From the NCBI RefSeq assembly GCF_005795905.1, contig NZ_VAWE01000001.1:6995001-7059000 (forward strand): 64,000 bases of DNA, written 5' to 3'. Source of the stretch: Streptomyces marianii. GTDB taxonomy: Bacteria; Actinomycetota; Actinomycetes; Streptomycetales; Streptomycetaceae. Below the pieces are notes generated by a model. It was not told the DNA's origin. It ran no database searches and saw only the letters and a list, made by a program, of their open reading frames with translations. Below are positions 26,385 to 36,499 of this stretch, piece after piece (within the stretch, counting starts at the first letter, position 1; each line of letters begins with the position of its first letter). The translations under genes were made by a program, and so were the position numbers.

Positions 26385-27620
<1,236 letters not shown>

Positions 27621-28029
27621 GACGAGTCCTTGGAAGTCCCTGACGGGTCGGTGCCGGGCGGGCCCGTCGGCATACCGCGCCGGGAGAAACGAGGGAGGGG
27701 CGGTCGGTGGCCCCGCCGGCCCGAGGGCGGCCTGCGGGGCGCCGCATGACGACCCTGCCGTTTCCGGCACCTGGCCGGGCGACTGCCGCCCGTCCGCGAC
27801 AGGCGGGGGCAGGCCGATCCGCCGTCCGTCGTCCCCCGCGCCGAGCGGTCGTGGACGAGGGGAGCGAGGACGACCCGTCCGCCGCCTCCATCACCACCAG
27901 GATGATGGCCCGCGGCCGACTGTGCGAACGGGAGCGCGACGGAGCCCGTCCGCAGGTGGGACCGGATCACCTCCGGCCCCACCCGCCAACGGTCCGTCGG
28001 TGCGACGCCGGGTGCGGACCCGCGTGGAC
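27621..28029. other. intergenic region, no gene supported
   Basis: About 410 bp between the SGNH stop and the P450 start. Open frames here are GC shadows. It should hold the P450 promoter, but no convincing -10/-35 pair was seen. Confidence 0.5.
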
Positions 28030-29550: not shown

Positions 29551-29874
29551 GGACGTCCTCCTGTCCGTTGAACGGGTTACCGCCGGTTTCTACGGGTGGG
29601 TAAGGCCGGTGGGAACGCCGAGAACGAGACAAAAGAGGCCGGTTCGCGTCGTACGCCGTGGCCGCGGTCCACCTGTACGGTCCGACTGCGCCGTCGGGCT
29701 GGACAGTTCACGAGCCGTTGGGTAAGTGGTGTGCGCACGAGCCGACGGCACCTCGGGACGACCCTGCGGCCGCCGCTCGTCGGCGAGCGCCGGGGCGTCG
29801 CCGCACGGGGGACGACCGTGCCGGCGCACGCAGATCCCCGGGGGCCGCCGTCCGGTCCTCGCCCAAGGAGTGAG
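29551..29874. other. divergent intergenic region
   Basis: About 320 bp between the divergent SGNH and MBL genes. It should carry both promoters; none is clear by eye. A small frame at 29658-29873 was considered and rejected. Confidence 0.5.
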
Positions 29875-31185
29875 ATGACTTTCACCGTCACCGAGTACGC
29901 CGACCGCGTCTGGAACGGCGAGATCGACGACAGCATCGTGAGCACCCCGAAGAGCGGCGCCGGAGTGATCGACGTCGTCGACGGCGTCGGATGGCGCCCG
30001 GGGTTCGGCAACGTCTTCGCGTTCCGCGCGGCCGGCGAGCTGCTCCTGTTCGACACGGGCAATCCGTATGACGCCTCGGGCCTCCACCAGGACCTGCGCC
30101 GGTGGAGCAAGATGCCGGTCACCACCGCGGTCTTCTCGCACGGCCATGTCGACCATGTGGGTGGGACCGGCCCGTTCGACGCCGAGGAAGGCCCGGCGCT
30201 CACCGTCGTCGCGCACGAGATGACCGGGGCGCGCTTCGACCGGTACCTCCTCACCAACGGCTACAACGCGGTGATCAACCAACGGCAGTTCCAGCTTCCG
30301 GGCCTGACCTGGCCCACCGAGTACCGCCGCCCGGACGTCACGTACCGGGACGGCATGACCCTCACGACCGGCGAGCTGACCTGCGAGCTGTTCCACGTCC
30401 GCGGCGAGACCGACGACGCGACCGTGGCCTGGTTCCCCCGGTGGCGCATCCTGTGCCCCGGCGACATGTTCATCTGGCTCGCCCCGAACTGCGGCAACCC
30501 CCAGAAAGTGCAGCGCTATCCGCGGGAGTGGGCCCTCGCGCTGCGTCGCATGGCCGCCCTGGACGCGGAGATCATGCTTCCCTCGCACGGCGCGCCGGTC
30601 TTCGGCGCCGATCGCGTCCGCCAGGCGCTGGAGGAGACGGCGGAATGGCTGGAGAGCCTGGTGGAGCAGACCCTGGCGGGCCTCAACGCGGGTGCGCGGC
30701 TGGACGACCTCCTGCACACGGTCAGCCCTCCGGCCCATCTGTCCGGCAGGCCGTACCTGCGGGCCGCGTACGACGAACCCGAGTTCGTGGTGCGCAACCT
30801 GTGGCGCCAGTACGGCGGTTGGTACGACGGCAACCCGGCCCGGCTGAAGCCCGCTTCCGACGCCCGGCTGGCCACCGAGCTCGCCGGGCTCGCCGGCGGG
30901 GCCGGGGTGCTGGCCGACGCCGCGCGGCGCCACGCCGACGCCGGCGAGTTCCGGCTGGCCGGGCACCTCGCGGAGCTGGCCGTGCTCGCCGAGCCCGACA
31001 GGGCGTCCCTGCACCGTGTGCGGGCGGAGGTCTACGAGGCACGGGCGGAGGAGGAGGCGTCCTTGATGGCCAGGGGCGTCTTCCGCTGGGCCGCTTCGGA
31101 GTCGCGGCGCAAGTGCGAGGAGGACACCCGAGGGCCGGCCGCGTGCGGGGGAACGGAGTCGCACGGGGCCTCTGCGTCGGAGTAG
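29875..31185 (+). CDS. MBL-fold alkyl-sulfatase-like hydrolase
   Basis: 436-residue metallo-beta-lactamase-fold protein. The metal motif is HGHVDH (His89, His91, Asp93, His94), with a later GETDD and SHGAPVFG metal-site regions. C-terminal to this is the alkyl-sulfatase dimerisation segment (FVVRNLWRQYGGWYDGNPA). The SCP2-like third domain of full alkyl sulfatases is absent. Expected reaction: hydrolysis of a sulfate or related ester. AAGGAG precedes the ATG. Its last 154 bp overlap antisense with the convergent MFS gene. A full-length relative is at 50811-52628. Confidence 0.88.
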   Translation: MTFTVTEYADRVWNGEIDDSIVSTPKSGAGVIDVVDGVGWRPGFGNVFAFRAAGELLLFDTGNPYDASGLHQDLRRWSKMPVTTAVFSHGHVDHVGGTGPFDAEEGPALTVVAHEMTGARFDRYLLTNGYNAVINQRQFQLPGLTWPTEYRRPDVTYRDGMTLTTGELTCELFHVRGETDDATVAWFPRWRILCPGDMFIWLAPNCGNPQKVQRYPREWALALRRMAALDAEIMLPSHGAPVFGADRVRQALEETAEWLESLVEQTLAGLNAGARLDDLLHTVSPPAHLSGRPYLRAAYDEPEFVVRNLWRQYGGWYDGNPARLKPASDARLATELAGLAGGAGVLADAARRHADAGEFRLAGHLAELAVLAEPDRASLHRVRAEVYEARAEEEASLMARGVFRWAASESRRKCEEDTRGPAACGGTESHGASASE

Positions 31186-32468
31186 CCGCCGCGCCTTTGC
31201 CCGGGCCCGCCGCTCGACGGCCCGGGGACCGGGCGAGGGGTGCGGGCGAGCGGGAGGGACAGCGCCGCACCCGCCAGTCCGGTCGCCAGCGTGCCGGCGG
31301 CCAGGGCCTGCTCCCCGCGCTGGAGCCCCCACGCCGCCAGCAGGGGGGAGAGCGTCCCCGCGGCGGCGAGGACGGTGCCCCAGACCCCCTGGTAGCGGCC
31401 GCGCCGGTCCGGGGGAGCCAGCTGCCGGAGGATGTGGGACGTGGCGACGAACCACGCGATCTCGCCGGGGGCGCACGCCGCCGCGGCCACGGCGAAGCCG
31501 GACGTCGTACGGGCGAGTGCCGCCGCCGCCATGGGGACGGCGACGGCCACCGACGCGACCGCCACCATGCCCGGCATCGAGCGCCCGCCGGCGGCCCATC
31601 GGCTCAGCCAGGGTGTCATGGCGGGGGTGAGCGCGATGACGGCGGCGGAGTTGACCAGTGCCGTGAGGCCGTAGGCCTCGGGGGAGAGACCCCGGGCGGC
31701 CATCATCATCGGCACGGCCGCGGCCATGCCGACCAGGGCCGTCATCGTGGCCAGGCCGGAGGCGAGCAGGAGCGCCAGACGCCCGGTGAGCCGGACGCCG
31801 CCGCTTCGGCTCGTTCTCGCGCGGCTTGCGCGGCCCCGGCGGTCGGCCGGCAGCCTGCGCAGCGCGCCCACGGCGAAAGCCGCGCACGCCGTCGCGTTGA
31901 CCCAGTAGAGGGCGTCGACGCCCCACCGGGCGGCCAGCAGGCCGCCGAGGCCGCCGGCGACGAGGGCGCCGCCGTTGACCACCAGTCCGTACCGCAGCGC
32001 GTTGACCTTCGCACGCCGTCCGGGATCCGGTACGAGTTCGTCGATCGCGGCGCCGACCACCACGCGCGGTGCGTCGAAGACGAGGCCCAGCGCCAGGGCA
32101 CCGGCGATCAGCAGGGCCGGCGACGACGTGGCCGTCAGCAGGGGCAGCACCGCGGCGGAGACCAGTGCCGCTGCCACCAGGGTCGTCCGCCGGCCGACGC
32201 GGTCGAGCAGTCGGCCGCACGCGGCCTGTCCGCTCATCCAGCCCGCACCGAAGGCGGCGAGCACGACGCCGGCGGTGTCCGGCCCGTGCCCCTTCCCGGC
32301 GAGCAGGTAGCTCAGGAACGGGTAGGCGAAACCGGCCGCACGCAGGAGCAGCATCCCGGCAAGGAGCAGCCGGAGCTCCTGGGGGCACCAGGCGCGCAAT
32401 CCGGCGGCCCGCCGGCCGGCCCCGGCCGCGAGGGCACGGACACGCACCCGGCGTGTGCCCTTCGTCAT
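31032..32468 (-). CDS. MFS transporter (probable exporter)
   Basis: 478-residue major facilitator with about 12 helices; the loop GRLLDRVGRRTT is the family motif A after helix 2. The cytoplasmic N-terminus is Arg-rich. A polar tail of about 60 residues follows the last helix and is encoded over the antisense end of the MBL gene. The start overlaps the JmjC stop (ATGA), so it is translationally coupled to it. In the operon small peptide - JmjC - MFS it is the natural candidate to export the finished product. Confidence 0.88.
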   Translation of the reverse strand: MTKGTRRVRVRALAAGAGRRAAGLRAWCPQELRLLLAGMLLLRAAGFAYPFLSYLLAGKGHGPDTAGVVLAAFGAGWMSGQAACGRLLDRVGRRTTLVAAALVSAAVLPLLTATSSPALLIAGALALGLVFDAPRVVVGAAIDELVPDPGRRAKVNALRYGLVVNGGALVAGGLGGLLAARWGVDALYWVNATACAAFAVGALRRLPADRRGRASRARTSRSGGVRLTGRLALLLASGLATMTALVGMAAAVPMMMAARGLSPEAYGLTALVNSAAVIALTPAMTPWLSRWAAGGRSMPGMVAVASVAVAVPMAAAALARTTSGFAVAAAACAPGEIAWFVATSHILRQLAPPDRRGRYQGVWGTVLAAAGTLSPLLAAWGLQRGEQALAAGTLATGLAGAALSLPLARTPRPVPGPSSGGPGQRRGGYSDAEAPCDSVPPHAAGPRVSSSHLRRDSEAAQRKTPLAIKDASSSARAS

Positions 32469-33673
32469 GGTTCGAGGGCGACCGCTCCCAGCCGCGCGAG
32501 GGTCTTCACGGCCTTGACGGAGTCCTCCGGTGCGGCGTTCGGCACGAACCGCCCGGCCGGCACCACCGCGCCCGCGGCGCAGGACCGCAGGGCGTCGGCC
32601 ACGGATCGCGGCACGGCCACCGTCTTCCCGTCGAACCGCACGCCGACGCGGTCCCCGGCGGCGCTCTGCGTGAACGAGAAGTCGGCGTGGGCCGCCCGCA
32701 CGGGAGTGGACGCGTCCGTCTCGTCCACGGCCGCGGCGGAGGCGAAGCGGTGCCCGGCCGCGATTCCCTCGGCGTCGCGACCCTCGGCCGTGAGACGTGC
32801 GACCTCCGCGCGCGGGTCGATCGCCCGCAGGCGCTCCACCAGGAGCTCGATCCGGTCCTTGAGGGCCGCCGCCTGCTCTTCCGTCGTCTCCTCGGTCAGA
32901 TGGGGGAAGCCGCGGTGCTCCGGGTCGGCCGGCATCGCCTCGGCCACCGTGGAGCGCAGCAGTTCGGGCCAGGTGCGCGGTGTCACGGTCACGGTCAGGT
33001 GGAGCGAGACCGAGTCCTCGGCGGCGGCCACATGGGGGGTGCCGCTGGGCAGGTACATCACGTCGCCGGGCCGCAGGGTCACATCGAGCAGGGGCTCGCC
33101 CAGATGCTCGGCCCGGTACTCCTCACCCACCTTGTAGGGGCGGCCGTCGGGCCTGAGGACCTCGGCCGTGGGCCAGACCCTCCACCGCTTGCTCCCGTGC
33201 AGGTGGATGACGAAGGTGTCGTTGGGGTCGTGGTGGATGACGAACCCCTGCTGCCCTGCCGGGGTGAGGAAGGCGAGGGAGTCGCTCCGGGTCGCGAACC
33301 TCTGCGCCAGCATCGCGTTCAGCGCGCGGAGGTTGGGCCGGAAGTGGTTCATGGAGTGCCACACGACGCTGGCTCCCGTGCGGAAGTGCTCGTACACGCG
33401 CTCCGGCACGACGCGGTCGGGGATGTACTTCCGCTGTACGCGCAGCGGTTGCGTGTAGGTGCCCTCATGGATCAGATCACCGCGTTTGACCAGTCTCAGG
33501 TACTGGGTGCGCAGGGCCTCCTGATGGAGGCAGTCGTCCAGGTCCGCCACCGAGAGGAGTTCCTCCGGCGGGCCGGTGAGTGCCTCCCTCCGCAGGAGGG
33601 GGGACCTGCCGAAGTGCTCGGCGAAGAACCTCTCCTCGTCGCCGACGAGAGAGGCGAACGTGGGTACGTACAT
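32465..33673 (-). CDS. JmjC/cupin Fe(II)-2-oxoglutarate oxygenase
   Basis: 402-residue oxygenase resembling bacterial ribosomal-oxygenase (YcfD/ROXA-like) JmjC proteins. The metal triad is His147-x-Asp149 (IHHDPND) and distal His214 (PSGTPHVA), in a beta-barrel running from about residue 95 to 230. A dimerisation helix bundle and a C-terminal winged-helix-like domain (about 330-402) follow. Family members hydroxylate residues in proteins or peptides. It lies 105 bp downstream of a 29-codon peptide gene and is coupled to the MFS exporter, so a RiPP-maturing role is proposed. AGGAG precedes the ATG. Confidence 0.88.
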   Translation of the reverse strand: MYVPTFASLVGDEERFFAEHFGRSPLLRREALTGPPEELLSVADLDDCLHQEALRTQYLRLVKRGDLIHEGTYTQPLRVQRKYIPDRVVPERVYEHFRTGASVVWHSMNHFRPNLRALNAMLAQRFATRSDSLAFLTPAGQQGFVIHHDPNDTFVIHLHGSKRWRVWPTAEVLRPDGRPYKVGEEYRAEHLGEPLLDVTLRPGDVMYLPSGTPHVAAAEDSVSLHLTVTVTPRTWPELLRSTVAEAMPADPEHRGFPHLTEETTEEQAAALKDRIELLVERLRAIDPRAEVARLTAEGRDAEGIAAGHRFASAAAVDETDASTPVRAAHADFSFTQSAAGDRVGVRFDGKTVAVPRSVADALRSCAAGAVVPAGRFVPNAAPEDSVKAVKTLARLGAVALEP

Positions 33674-33740
33674 GGGTGGCTCCTGTCCACAGGGGGCTCC
33701 GCCGGGAAGTCCGGGCTTCCGGCAAGGGGTGCCGACGGCC

Positions 33741-33771
33741 GGGGGTGGCCCGGGGCGTACGGGCCACCCCC
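33741..33771 (-). terminator. attenuator-like hairpin between peptide gene and JmjC gene
   Basis: GGGGGTGGCCC (33741-33751) pairs perfectly with GGGCCACCCCC (33761-33771), an 11-bp stem with a 9-nt loop, starting 7 bp after the peptide stop. Leaky terminators in this position are common after RiPP precursor genes, giving more precursor mRNA than enzyme mRNA. Confidence 0.65.
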
Positions 33772-33778
33772 GTCGCCG

Positions 33779-33868
33779 CTACGGGACGTACTGGGTGATG
33801 AGATCGTCCGTTTCGGACTCGATCAGCTCGATTTCGATGTCCGTGTTCATGTCCGTGTTCATCTCCAT
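33779..33868 (-). CDS. 29-residue acidic peptide, candidate RiPP precursor
   Basis: Short gene encoding 29 residues; reads MEMNTDMNTD then IEIELIESET then DDLITQYVP. Codon use has strong GC third positions, and a GGAGG lies 8 nt before the ATG. The N-terminal part is acidic and leader-like, with a tandem MNTD repeat; the C-terminal LITQYVP would be the core. It contains no Cys, so it is not a lanthipeptide or thiopeptide. It is directly upstream of, and on the same strand as, the JmjC oxygenase and MFS genes, with a hairpin in between. The peptide role is inference; no known family was recognised. Confidence 0.6.
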   Translation of the reverse strand: MEMNTDMNTDIEIELIESETDDLITQYVP

Positions 33869-34172
33869 GTCGCACACCTCCTTCGGGGGGAACTGGACCG
33901 GCGCGGCGTCAGGACCGCGCCGGCCATGGCTCCACCCTGGCGGGTCCGGGCGCCCCGGGGCCTCGTGCGATCGGCGGACCGGCCGGTGGAACGTCCGGTC
34001 CGCCTGTGGGGGGACGGCACGGTGCCGCGCGCGCCTCGGAACCCCTCGTCGAACGCCGCGGTCGGCCTCGAAGGGACCTCGGCGACCGATGTCCGGCCCG
34101 CTCGGCGCGCACGACGCACCCCGGGCACATTGCGCACTGACGGATCATCAGTTCCCTGAGTCGGCGGCCCCA
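33869..34172. other. intergenic region upstream of peptide operon
   Basis: About 300 bp with no supported gene, between the divergent peptide operon and the tetR promoter. It should contain the peptide operon promoter, which was not recognised. Confidence 0.5.
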
Positions 34173-34202
34173 TTGAATACTGAGTTGAACTCAACTTAGG
34201 CT
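34173..34202 (+). promoter_or_regulatory. tetR promoter with embedded palindromic operator
   Basis: TTGAAT (34173-34178), 18 bp, then TAGGCT (34197-34202), 6 bp before the GTG at 34209, so the mRNA is probably leaderless. Between the hexamers lies the perfect palindrome AGTTGA-AC-TCAACT (34183-34196), well placed for autorepression by the TetR protein and perhaps for control of the divergent peptide operon. Confidence 0.7.
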
Positions 34203-34208
34203 GAGGGC

Positions 34209-34808
34209 GTGACCACGCCCACACGCCCCCGCGGTGCCGCCTCGCGCGCCCTGCTGCTGCGTGCCGCGGCCGAGGAACTGGCCGGGAACGGGACGCTGGA
34301 GGTCGCTGCCGTCGCCCGCCGTGCCGGAGTCAGCGTCGGCCTGCCCTATCGCTACTTCGGCACCCGGAGCGGGCTTCTCATCGCCGTCGTCGAGTCCTTC
34401 TACGAACGGCTCGCGGAAGCCTGCATGCTGCGCGGGTACGACGATCCGACCTGGGTCGAACGGGAGTCGCGGCGGGTTCGCGACTTGGTCGGGTTCCTCT
34501 ACGCCGAACCACTCGCCCCGTTGGTCCTCGGCGGGCACGCCGGCGACGGCGAGGTGGCCGCCTTCCAGACGCGCCGGCGCTCCGTCCTCGTCGAACTGGC
34601 GGCGCGCAACATCGCCCGTGCCCAGCGCACGGGGGAGCTCCCGCCCCGAAGCGACCCCGAGCTGCTGGCCGCCGCCACCCTTGCGGGAGCCGCCGCCATG
34701 GTCTCGGTGGCCCTCACCCGCACCCCGCGCCCACCCGCCGAGGAGGTGACCGCCCAGGTGTGGGCCTTCCTCCGCGGCGCGGTGAACCCGTCCGGCCCCG
34801 CCGCCTGA
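34209..34808 (+). CDS. TetR-family regulator
   Basis: 199-residue one-component regulator with an N-terminal TetR HTH (LEVAAVARRAGVSVGLPYRYF, residues about 30-51) and a helical ligand/dimer domain. GTG start at 34209, with no clear Shine-Dalgarno and a promoter ending 6 bp upstream. A palindrome sits inside its own promoter. It lies between the divergent peptide/JmjC/MFS operon and the PhyH oxygenase, which begins 13 bp after its stop, so it probably controls this cluster in response to a small molecule. Confidence 0.9.
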   Translation: MTTPTRPRGAASRALLLRAAAEELAGNGTLEVAAVARRAGVSVGLPYRYFGTRSGLLIAVVESFYERLAEACMLRGYDDPTWVERESRRVRDLVGFLYAEPLAPLVLGGHAGDGEVAAFQTRRRSVLVELAARNIARAQRTGELPPRSDPELLAAATLAGAAAMVSVALTRTPRPPAEEVTAQVWAFLRGAVNPSGPAA

Positions 34809-34821
34809 GAGGACCCACGCC

Positions 34822-35730
34822 GTGCCCCCGACCCATGATGCCCTCCGTCGTGCAGGCGGCGATCGCGTCTCGACGCCGGAAGGCCTCGCCGCAGACCTGG
34901 CTGCCGGGTACCCGCGCGCCCCCGGCGCGGGCGCACGGGTCGACCGTGCCACCGTCGAGGGCGACCTCGCCGCCGTCGCGCGCGACGGTTACGTGCTCCT
35001 CCCCGAGCTGCTCACCCCCCGGGAGTGCGCCGAGATCAGGCAAGCCGTGACGCCGCTGCTCGACAGGACCGGCCGCAACGCCTTCGAGGGCCACCGGACA
35101 CAGCGCGTCTACAGTCTGCTCAACAAGACCCGCTGCTGCGACCGGCTCGTCGAGCACCCCAGGGTCCTGGCCCTGCTGGACCGGCTGTTCGAACCCGGCT
35201 ACCTGCTGTCCCAGCTCCAGGTCATCAACATCACCCCGGGCGAGCACGCCCAACTGCTGCACACCGACGACGCGTTATACCGTTCACCGCGCCCGCGACC
35301 GCCTCTCGGAGCGGCCACGATATGGGCCGTCGACCCGTTCACCCACGACAACGGGGGCACCGTCGTCCTGCCGGGCAGCCACCTCTGGGGCGACGACCGC
35401 CGCCCCGGCGGCCGTGACCCCCGCATGACGGCCGTGATGCCCCCCGGCTCCTGCCTGTTCTTCGTCGGCACCCTGTGGCACGGCGGCGGCGCCAACCGCT
35501 CGGGGGGCGACCGCCTCTCCCTGACCGCCCAGTACTGCCAGCCCTGGCTGCGGCCGCAGGAAGCCTTCACCCTCTCCGTCACGCGCGAGACCGCCAGGAC
35601 GGTGTCCGAGGACATCCGGCGCATGATCGGCTACAGCGTCCACCCCCCGTTCATCGGCATGGTCGACGGCATGCACCCTCGACGCCTGCTGGAGGCGCGG
35701 CCCTCCGCCTCGCGGCCGGCGGGCGGGTGA
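34822..35730 (+). CDS. PhyH-family Fe(II)-2-oxoglutarate dioxygenase with TTA codon
   Basis: 302-residue non-heme iron oxygenase. Metal ligands are His147, Asp149 (LLHTDD) and distal His220 (LWHGGGANRS), with Arg226 as the likely 2-oxoglutarate anchor. The core GYVLLPELLTPRECAEIR opening is typical of phytanoyl-CoA dioxygenase-like enzymes, which hydroxylate small molecules or carrier-bound substrates. Leu152 is encoded by TTA (35275-35277), so translation should need the bldA tRNA, a mark of late-stage or secondary-metabolic genes. It is probably co-transcribed with tetR and ends at a strong terminator. Confidence 0.9.
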   Translation: MPPTHDALRRAGGDRVSTPEGLAADLAAGYPRAPGAGARVDRATVEGDLAAVARDGYVLLPELLTPRECAEIRQAVTPLLDRTGRNAFEGHRTQRVYSLLNKTRCCDRLVEHPRVLALLDRLFEPGYLLSQLQVINITPGEHAQLLHTDDALYRSPRPRPPLGAATIWAVDPFTHDNGGTVVLPGSHLWGDDRRPGGRDPRMTAVMPPGSCLFFVGTLWHGGGANRSGGDRLSLTAQYCQPWLRPQEAFTLSVTRETARTVSEDIRRMIGYSVHPPFIGMVDGMHPRRLLEARPSASRPAGG

Positions 35731-35836: not shown

Positions 35837-36499
35837 GTGGGTGCGGTGATCGCCGAGATCGTGGCCCCCGCGCTGGGGATCGCCCTGTCGCCCTTCCCGC
35901 TGGTGCCCGCGATCCTCCTGCTGCTCAGCGCGCGGGCGCGGCAGAACAGCAGTGCCTTCGTCGTCGGCTGGACGGTCGGGGTCGCCGGTGCGGCCGTCCT
36001 GTTCACCCTGCTGACCTCCGTCGTCGAGATCGCCGGGGAGCCGCCCGCCTGGGTCTCCTGGGGGCGGATCGGCCTGGGCGGCCTGCTGGTCCTCCTGGGC
36101 GCGGGCCTGTGGAGGCGGCGGAGGCGAAGGGGAGCGAAGGCGGATCCGGCGTGGATACGGGCGCTGGAGACCGCCACCTGGCCGAGGGCCCTGCGGCTGG
36201 GCCTGCTGCTCTCGGCCGCCAACCCGAAGATCCTGGCCCTGATCGCGGCCGGTGGCGTCGCGATCGGTTCGGCCCGGCCGACGGCTGCGGGCAGGGCGGG
36301 CTCCCTCGCCCTGTTCACGCTCATCGCCTCCGCAGGCGTCGCCCTTCCGCCGTTGCTGCGCCTGCTCGCCGGGGAGCGGATCCTGCCACCGCTGGGGCGG
36401 GCCATGGACTGGCTGAAGGTCCACAGCGCCGCCGTCGTCGCCATCGTGATCGGCTTGATCGGGATCATGCTGGTGGCGAAGGGCGCCGGTGGGCTGTGA
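35837..36499 (+). CDS. GAP-family (Sap-like) membrane protein
   Basis: 220-residue integral membrane protein with six predicted helices (for example ALGIALSPFPLVPAILLLLS and GRIGLGGLLVLLGAGLW). The motif LSAANPKILALIAAGG is typical of GAP/LysE-like proteins (the mycobacterial Sap group moves lipids or peptidoglycolipids). An Arg-rich loop lies near residues 92-98. Start GTG at 35837 or 35846. It follows a terminator, so it has its own promoter. Cargo unknown; a link to the cluster upstream is possible only by position. Confidence 0.8.
   Translation: MGAVIAEIVAPALGIALSPFPLVPAILLLLSARARQNSSAFVVGWTVGVAGAAVLFTLLTSVVEIAGEPPAWVSWGRIGLGGLLVLLGAGLWRRRRRRGAKADPAWIRALETATWPRALRLGLLLSAANPKILALIAAGGVAIGSARPTAAGRAGSLALFTLIASAGVALPPLLRLLAGERILPPLGRAMDWLKVHSAAVVAIVIGLIGIMLVAKGAGGL

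What the first reader, a model, noticed from the sequence alone, without database searches (positions are those of the whole stretch)
31032..35730. Candidate undescribed RiPP-type system: 29-residue peptide, JmjC oxygenase, MFS exporter, TetR and PhyH oxygenase
Seen: a 29-codon gene (33779-33868) with strong Shine-Dalgarno, GC-rich codons and an acidic leader-like N-terminus. It is followed by an 11-bp hairpin, then a JmjC oxygenase with intact His147/Asp149/His214, coupled by ATGA to an MFS exporter. Divergent are a TetR with its own operator and a second Fe(II)/2OG oxygenase (PhyH). Known: JmjC proteins hydroxylate peptide or protein side chains. Inferred: the C-terminal DLITQYVP is hydroxylated and exported. 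No cyclase, LanM, YcaO or protease of known RiPP classes is present.
Basis: partly seen in the sequence, partly recalled or inferred. Interest (0 to 1): 0.85.

Follow-up and report, generated by a model that had tools for sequence, protein, structure and literature searches.

The report
Small peptide modified by JmjC oxygenase
A Streptomyces chromosome carries a tiny gene for a 29-residue peptide that is conserved beside an iron oxygenase likely to grip the peptide's front end and oxidise its tail before export, which points to a little-explored family of ribosomally made natural products.

Summary
The 29-codon gene is real and conserved. The closest orthologous locus (G290, JmjC 89% identical) keeps the last 17 residues, with four synonymous changes only. 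Leader-type peptides accompany JmjC genes in 22 of 27 near-group loci, the window included. A whole-genome profile search of 295 Streptomyces found them in 8, all 12 hits within 1.3 kb of JmjC. A hairpin follows the peptide in 26 of 29 contexts against 24 of 202 other gene ends. The JmjC C-terminal domain folds like the ribosomal-oxygenase winged helix and, next, like RiPP recognition elements. Three near-group JmjC copies without it sit in LanB/LanC or YcaO-TfuA clusters. Best reading: a RiPP precursor whose IEIELIE leader docks on the JmjC protein, whose core is oxidised, and whose product leaves by MFS. TetR and PhyH are missing from the G290 locus and are not established parts. JmjC hydroxylases in RiPPs are known (BipG) and RRE-JmjC fusions have been noted; a JmjC-centred family with this leader was not found in my nine searches. 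No modification has been shown.

The parts
33779..33868 (-). Precursor-like peptide gene, 29 aa; leader-like part with IEIELIE motif, core-like C-terminus DDLITQYVP
   Evidence: last 17 codons: 4 synonymous, 0 non-synonymous changes against G290; z 4.73, 1 of 2000 shuffles
33877..33883 (-). Shine-Dalgarno AAGGAGG, 8 nt before the ATG
   Evidence: sequence
33740..33772 (-). 13-bp perfect GC-rich hairpin after the peptide stop, likely a partial terminator or mRNA stabiliser that keeps precursor above enzyme
   Evidence: a stem of 9 bp or more in 26 of 29 precursor contexts
32465..33673 (-). JmjC_2 (PF08007) Fe(II)/2-oxoglutarate oxygenase, His147/Asp149/His214 intact
32465..32704 (-). C-terminal winged-helix, RRE-like domain of the JmjC protein (about residues 324-402), proposed leader-binding site
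   Evidence: predicted fold
31032..32468 (-). MFS transporter, overlaps JmjC stop by ATGA; proposed exporter
   Evidence: (78% aa identity over 412 residues in G290)
35837..36499 (+). SfLAP (PF11139) membrane protein, divergent; also beside the G290 locus (80% aa), not found in the S. solincola stretch L019; possible accessory
   Evidence: matches at 1e-30 in 3 of 61 genomes, own included
34209..34808 (+). TetR regulator; neighbour, not shown to belong
   Evidence: absent from the G290 block
34181..34193 (.). Palindrome TGAGTTGAACTCA, likely TetR auto-operator
34822..35730 (+). PhyH oxygenase; neighbour, not shown to belong

Best explanation
A minimal RiPP-type locus. The 29-residue peptide is a precursor. 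Its acidic, strand-like segment IEIELIE is bound by the winged-helix (RRE-like) C-terminal domain of the JmjC protein, which presents the C-terminal core (LITQYVP) to the Fe(II)/2-oxoglutarate centre. The core is oxidised, most likely by hydroxylation at or next to the L-x-T-x-Y stretch shared with most relatives (my first guess is the beta carbon of Tyr27, second Gln26). The hairpin keeps precursor levels above enzyme levels. The leader is removed by a protease not seen here and the product leaves through the overlapping MFS gene's protein, perhaps with the SfLAP protein. Shown here: conserved coding peptide, linkage, hairpin, intact metal site, RRE-like predicted fold, RiPP contexts of relatives. 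Inferred: leader binding, modified residue, proteolysis, export.
Against: An HMM built from nine DIEFIET-type precursors alone does not find the window peptide at E 100. Similarity of the window peptide to the L030, L021 and L035 peptides is marginal (39, 37, 27 of 2000). Over 16 DIEFIET core variants pairwise differences are 379 synonymous and 350 non-synonymous, the latter at 10 of 21 positions. No protease or cyclase was found among the neighbours scanned. The domain match is a predicted fold at pLDDT 75 and Foldseek gave no E below 0.001; its best match is the winged helix of ribosomal oxygenases, so the fold does not prove leader binding. The 61 outgroup JmjC loci have no such peptide although the seven outgroup proteins aligned reach the C-terminal end. 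MFS genes of the clusters are not one orthologous group. S. solincola has a 5'-incomplete JmjC and no peptide.
Confidence: 0.8

Rival explanations
1. One reading: TetR controls the peptide operon and PhyH is a second tailoring oxygenase on the same peptide.
For: PhyH lies two genes from the peptide, and a distant PhyH (26% identity) lies in the JmjC-bearing YcaO-TfuA cluster L032.
Against: TetR and PhyH missing from the G290 block and PhyH from that genome at 1e-5; PhyH in G022 has no such TetR beside it and G022 is not among the JmjC-positive genomes; the palindrome sits at the TetR start only.
Confidence: 0.15
2. The small ORF is a regulatory leader (attenuator) for the JmjC gene and not a substrate.
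For: It precedes a hairpin and then the enzyme gene.
Against: C-terminal residues are constrained at amino-acid level; related loci carry two or three copies; the peptide precedes a nitroreductase in L035; no run of one regulatory codon in the sequence.
Confidence: 0.06
3. The JmjC protein is a ribosomal-protein oxygenase like NO66, MINA or YcfD, and the peptide is unrelated.
For: Best PDB matches are NO66 and MINA.
Against: Patchy: 12 of 392 Streptomyces; 25 of 27 near-group loci are peptide-linked (22) or in LanB/LanC or YcaO-TfuA clusters (3); the own genome has two other, more distant matches.
Confidence: 0.05
4. The peptide acts unmodified as a small bioactive or signalling peptide exported by MFS, with JmjC acting on something else.
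For: A peptide of 29 aa with a transporter gene in the same run.
Against: Co-occurrence is with JmjC, not with one MFS family.
Confidence: 0.04

Closest known systems
BipG/BpmG and PbsQ of biphenomycin-type RiPPs (PMC12707348: section 9 and passages; PMC12257519: passages)
   Same: JmjC/cupin Fe(II)/2OG oxygenase that hydroxylates a ribosomal precursor peptide (gamma-Orn shown for BipG)
   Different: There it is one tailoring step beside MNIO, B12-rSAM, arginase and TldD peptidase; none of those was found among the neighbours scanned here, and the FRF-type core is absent
RRE-fused JmjC (PF08007) proteins noted in PMC12710340 (section 6 read)
   Same: Same domain pair, JmjC plus bbb-aaa RRE-like domain; the paper says the closest bacterial homologues of fish and algal examples occur in RiPP-like contexts
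   Different: That section names no precursor or leader motif for them; here a precursor family is shown. The paper's supplements were not seen
Ribosomal oxygenases NO66, MINA, YcfD
   Same: Fold, metal site and C-terminal winged helix
   Different: Substrate is inferred to be a clustered small peptide
alpha-KG-dependent Cys-Tyr crosslinking RiPP enzyme (Xia et al. 2025, 10.1021/jacs.5c07332; not held, known only from the introduction of PMC12636437)
   Same: 2OG enzyme acting on a RiPP core
   Different: No Cys in this peptide; enzyme family of that paper not seen

Membership tests
RiPP biosynthetic locus | Short coding precursor gene under selection | tested here: met
RiPP biosynthetic locus | Modifying enzyme encoded near it, linkage conserved | tested here: met
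   22 of 27 near-group loci
RiPP biosynthetic locus | Leader recognition domain (common, not universal) | tested here: inconclusive
   RRE-like predicted fold; binding not testable here
RiPP biosynthetic locus | Post-translational modification of the core | not testable with these tools
   needs mass spectrometry
RiPP biosynthetic locus | Leader-cleaving protease (often, not always, in the cluster) | tested here: inconclusive
   no peptidase among 13 genes with Pfam matches between 20.7 and 41.9 kb; not every ORF of that stretch was scanned; unlinked proteases are common (recalled)
JmjC_2 (PF08007) oxygenases | Pfam match above cut-off and HxD...H metal triad | tested here: met
   80.7 bits against 22; H147/D149/H214 invariant in 25 of 25
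Biphenomycin family | MNIO, B12-rSAM, arginase-like and TldD enzymes with FRF-type core | tested here: not met
   C-terminus is LITQYVP; no such enzyme among the 13 neighbours with matches
Known NCBIfam or Pfam precursor family | Match to a curated precursor model | tested here: not met
   0 families for the window peptide (Pfam, NCBIfam) and for 5 relatives in NCBIfam

The most novel reading that the evidence does not exclude
RRE-fused JmjC oxygenases define their own RiPP class in actinobacteria, with a common I-E-x-I-E leader and changing cores (TQYVP, TSYYVNIQ, PLANIS, EQYVFVRIRLIK). Pairs of JmjC enzymes carry out chemistry beyond single hydroxylation, such as crosslinking or desaturation around Tyr-x-Asn. 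In the two-JmjC clusters the M13, S9 and M20 peptidases then cut a modified residue free as a small molecule.
Probability: 0.3. Interest if true: 0.88.

Novelty: new variant of a known kind. Interest (0 to 1): 0.72.

Why it matters
RiPP discovery depends on finding tiny, often unannotated precursors. Here the precursor, its likely recognition motif, a hairpin signature and the enzyme that appears to carry its own binding domain can all be named, so one co-expression experiment would test it. If true, JmjC enzymes, best known from chromatin and ribosome modification, are primary builders of a peptide family, and the same clade is shared as a tailoring part by lanthipeptide and YcaO-TfuA clusters.

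Tried and rejected
Viral contigs hold no relative by tblastn (19 pattern matches, 0 confirmed). Pfam finds nothing in the isolated C-terminal domain of the window protein even at E 10. An HMM of nine DIEFIET-type peptides does not find the window peptide; I kept the homology claim only after the shuffle test. L028 and L032 were searched for a leader-type peptide and none was found; they turned out to be YcaO-TfuA clusters. MFS orthology across clusters was tested and dropped. Literature: one search returned 0 papers; the 'jumonji' hits in PMC11450843 are a species name; PMC10783134 mentions a Nif11/cupin cluster only (passage); the main text of PMC13381572 has no JmjC. 'Not found in print' rests on searches of one open-licence library; most subscription papers and all supplements were not seen.

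Full report
What is there. The window lies in a 9.0-Mb genome with Streptomyces relatives (genus inferred from named records). On the minus strand run a 29-codon gene (33779-33868), a 13-bp perfect hairpin (33740-33772), a JmjC_2 oxygenase (32465-33673) and an MFS transporter (31032-32468) that overlaps the JmjC stop by ATGA. On the plus strand follow TetR (34209-34808), PhyH (34822-35730), an SfLAP membrane protein (35837-36499) and then arginine-type genes.

Is the peptide real? In genome G290 (JmjC 89% identical) the orthologous peptide is MNLDTDLDMDMDIELIESETDDLITQYVP. Its last 17 codons differ from the window by 4 synonymous and 0 non-synonymous changes, the first 12 by 8 non-synonymous and 1 synonymous. 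That is the pattern of a coding gene whose C-terminal part, leader motif included, is constrained. A motif and Shine-Dalgarno scan of the whole window returns this ORF alone; the same scan of 61 outgroup JmjC loci (1,077,775 bases) returns one unrelated ORF. The motif was drawn up from the peptides themselves.

Is it linked to JmjC? The near-group JmjC proteins came from genome searches, named genome contigs and plasmid records. Of 27 loci examined, 22 have a leader-type peptide next to or near a JmjC gene: the window, G290, G172, G012, L020-L027, L029-L031, L033-L035 and the plasmid records L097-L100. G061, G209, G083, G117, G472 and G1043 were taken as the same genomes as L024, L027, L100, L099, L029 and L033 and counted once. 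In L035 a nitroreductase gene, in G290 an insertion element lies between; one of two copies in L031 is about 6 kb from the second JmjC gene. The five without are L019 (S. solincola, JmjC missing about its first 123 residues), L028, L032, L102 (G096) and L012 (G269, a long branch on the tree). Not examined: G801 and G710 (34% identity), the S. lavendulae plasmid hit H2 and the other plasmid hits. A profile of ten peptides run against 295 whole Streptomyces genomes matched 8 genomes with 12 hits, all within 1.3 kb of a JmjC gene; JmjC at 1e-40 is in 10 of 295 in a draw of the same size and handles. The profile was built from peptides near JmjC, so the informative part is that no match lies elsewhere.

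What does the family look like? Most members read ME(N)...FDDIEFIETxxELLATSYYxNIQ, in one to three copies, with two JmjC genes per cluster. The window peptide aligns without gaps over IELIESETDDLITQY / IEFIETAEELLATSY. Its score beats all but 1 of 2000 composition-preserving shuffles; G290 beats all 2000. The peptides of L021 (2 of 2000), L035 (7) and L030 (55) are less certain. Against this, an HMM of nine DIEFIET-type peptides alone does not recover the window peptide, and over 16 core variants pairwise differences are 379 synonymous to 350 non-synonymous. The tree (47 rows; L008, L015, L023, L061, L104, L105, L109, L110 and one ORF of L012 dropped) places window, G290 and S. solincola in a clade of their own (100/100) apart from the two tandem JmjC clades.

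Hairpin. Within 70 nt of the stop codon a perfect stem of at least 9 bp is found in 26 of 29 distinct precursor contexts and in 24 of 202 ends of other long genes in the same loci (Fisher 2e-17, too strong because several contexts are close relatives). The exceptions are G290, where the insertion element separates peptide and hairpin, L030, where the JmjC gene follows at once, and one copy in L031. The window spacer as a whole is not exceptional against its own GC-rich shuffles (z -1.6; G290 z -0.8); it is the recurrence that carries weight.

Contexts. L035 (Rathayibacter iranicus): peptide, nitroreductase, JmjC, MFS. L021 (Crossiella): peptide, JmjC, MFS, second JmjC. L034 (Arthrobacter): peptide, two JmjC, M13 peptidase. 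Plasmid clusters L097-L100: two JmjC with M13, S9 and M20-type peptidases, a LOG-like protein and an MFS gene, carbamoyltransferase in 2 of 4 (domains checked for L099); the peptide gene is not in their gene tables, which PLSDB's table leaves incomplete. L102: Cys-rich precursor-like ORF, LanB, LanC and a JmjC without the C-terminal domain. L028 and L032: YcaO, TfuA and a JmjC without the domain; L032 also methyltransferase, PhyH, SDR and P450. So all three near-group JmjC that lack the RRE-like domain sit in clusters of established RiPP enzymes, and 22 of the other 24 come with their own leader-type peptide. That fits the domain being the leader reader; three cases are few, and the outgroup proteins keep the domain without such a peptide.

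What does not belong. The G290 block holds peptide, JmjC, MFS and SfLAP, but no TetR and no PhyH, and no PhyH elsewhere in that genome at 1e-5. PhyH orthologues at 1e-60 are in 2 of 150 Streptomyces (own and G022), the second without this TetR in the 3.9-kb stretch looked at. SfLAP relatives at 1e-30 are in 3 of 61 genomes; it lies beside the window and G290 loci but was not found in the S. solincola stretch.

Mechanism and status. I commit to a RiPP-type route: leader IEIELIE docks on the JmjC C-terminal domain, the Fe(II)/2OG centre oxidises the core near Thr-x-Tyr, an unlinked protease trims, MFS exports (confidence 0.8 for precursor and enzyme pairing, lower for the exact residue). Precedent for the chemistry is BipG. 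I rate it a new variant of a known kind: RiPP tailoring by JmjC is known; a JmjC-centred family with this leader was not found in nine searches of one open library.

Noticed in passing
L101 8532-9640 (G290): An insertion element (transposase-like by eye, not by a family search) sits directly after the peptide stop codon, with CTAG on both sides, separating an intact peptide from hairpin and JmjC gene.
   Followed up: partly
L102 9090-14850 (G096): Class I lanthipeptide-type cluster (Cys-rich precursor-like ORF, LanB, LanC) with a JmjC gene that lacks the C-terminal domain; JmjC as a lanthipeptide tailoring enzyme.
   Followed up: partly
L028 and L032, about 2.4-10.9 kb: YcaO-TfuA clusters of Streptomyces sp. 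S.PNR 29 and Actinomadura sp. 6K520 with a JmjC gene; L032 also methyltransferase, PhyH, SDR and P450. Thioamide-type RiPPs likely; precursor not identified.
   Followed up: partly
L097-L100 (plasmids of S. yangpuensis and three NBC strains): Linear plasmids carry the two-JmjC version with M13, S9 and M20-type peptidases and a LOG-like protein, two of four with a carbamoyltransferase; the precursors are missing from the gene tables.
   Followed up: partly
L035 8721-12441: Rathayibacter iranicus: peptide, nitroreductase, JmjC and MFS in a row; core PLANIS differs from the others.
   Followed up: no
L019 311-2077 (S. solincola; G996 taken as the same genome): JmjC relative (63%) that lacks about its first 123 residues in the assembly, with no peptide match in the genome; decay or assembly break.
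   Followed up: no
window 26385-27770 and 29596-31185: A cytochrome P450 and an alkyl-sulfatase-type metallo-beta-lactamase-fold protein lie near the locus. The latter has no match in the G290 block; the P450 was not compared.
   Followed up: no
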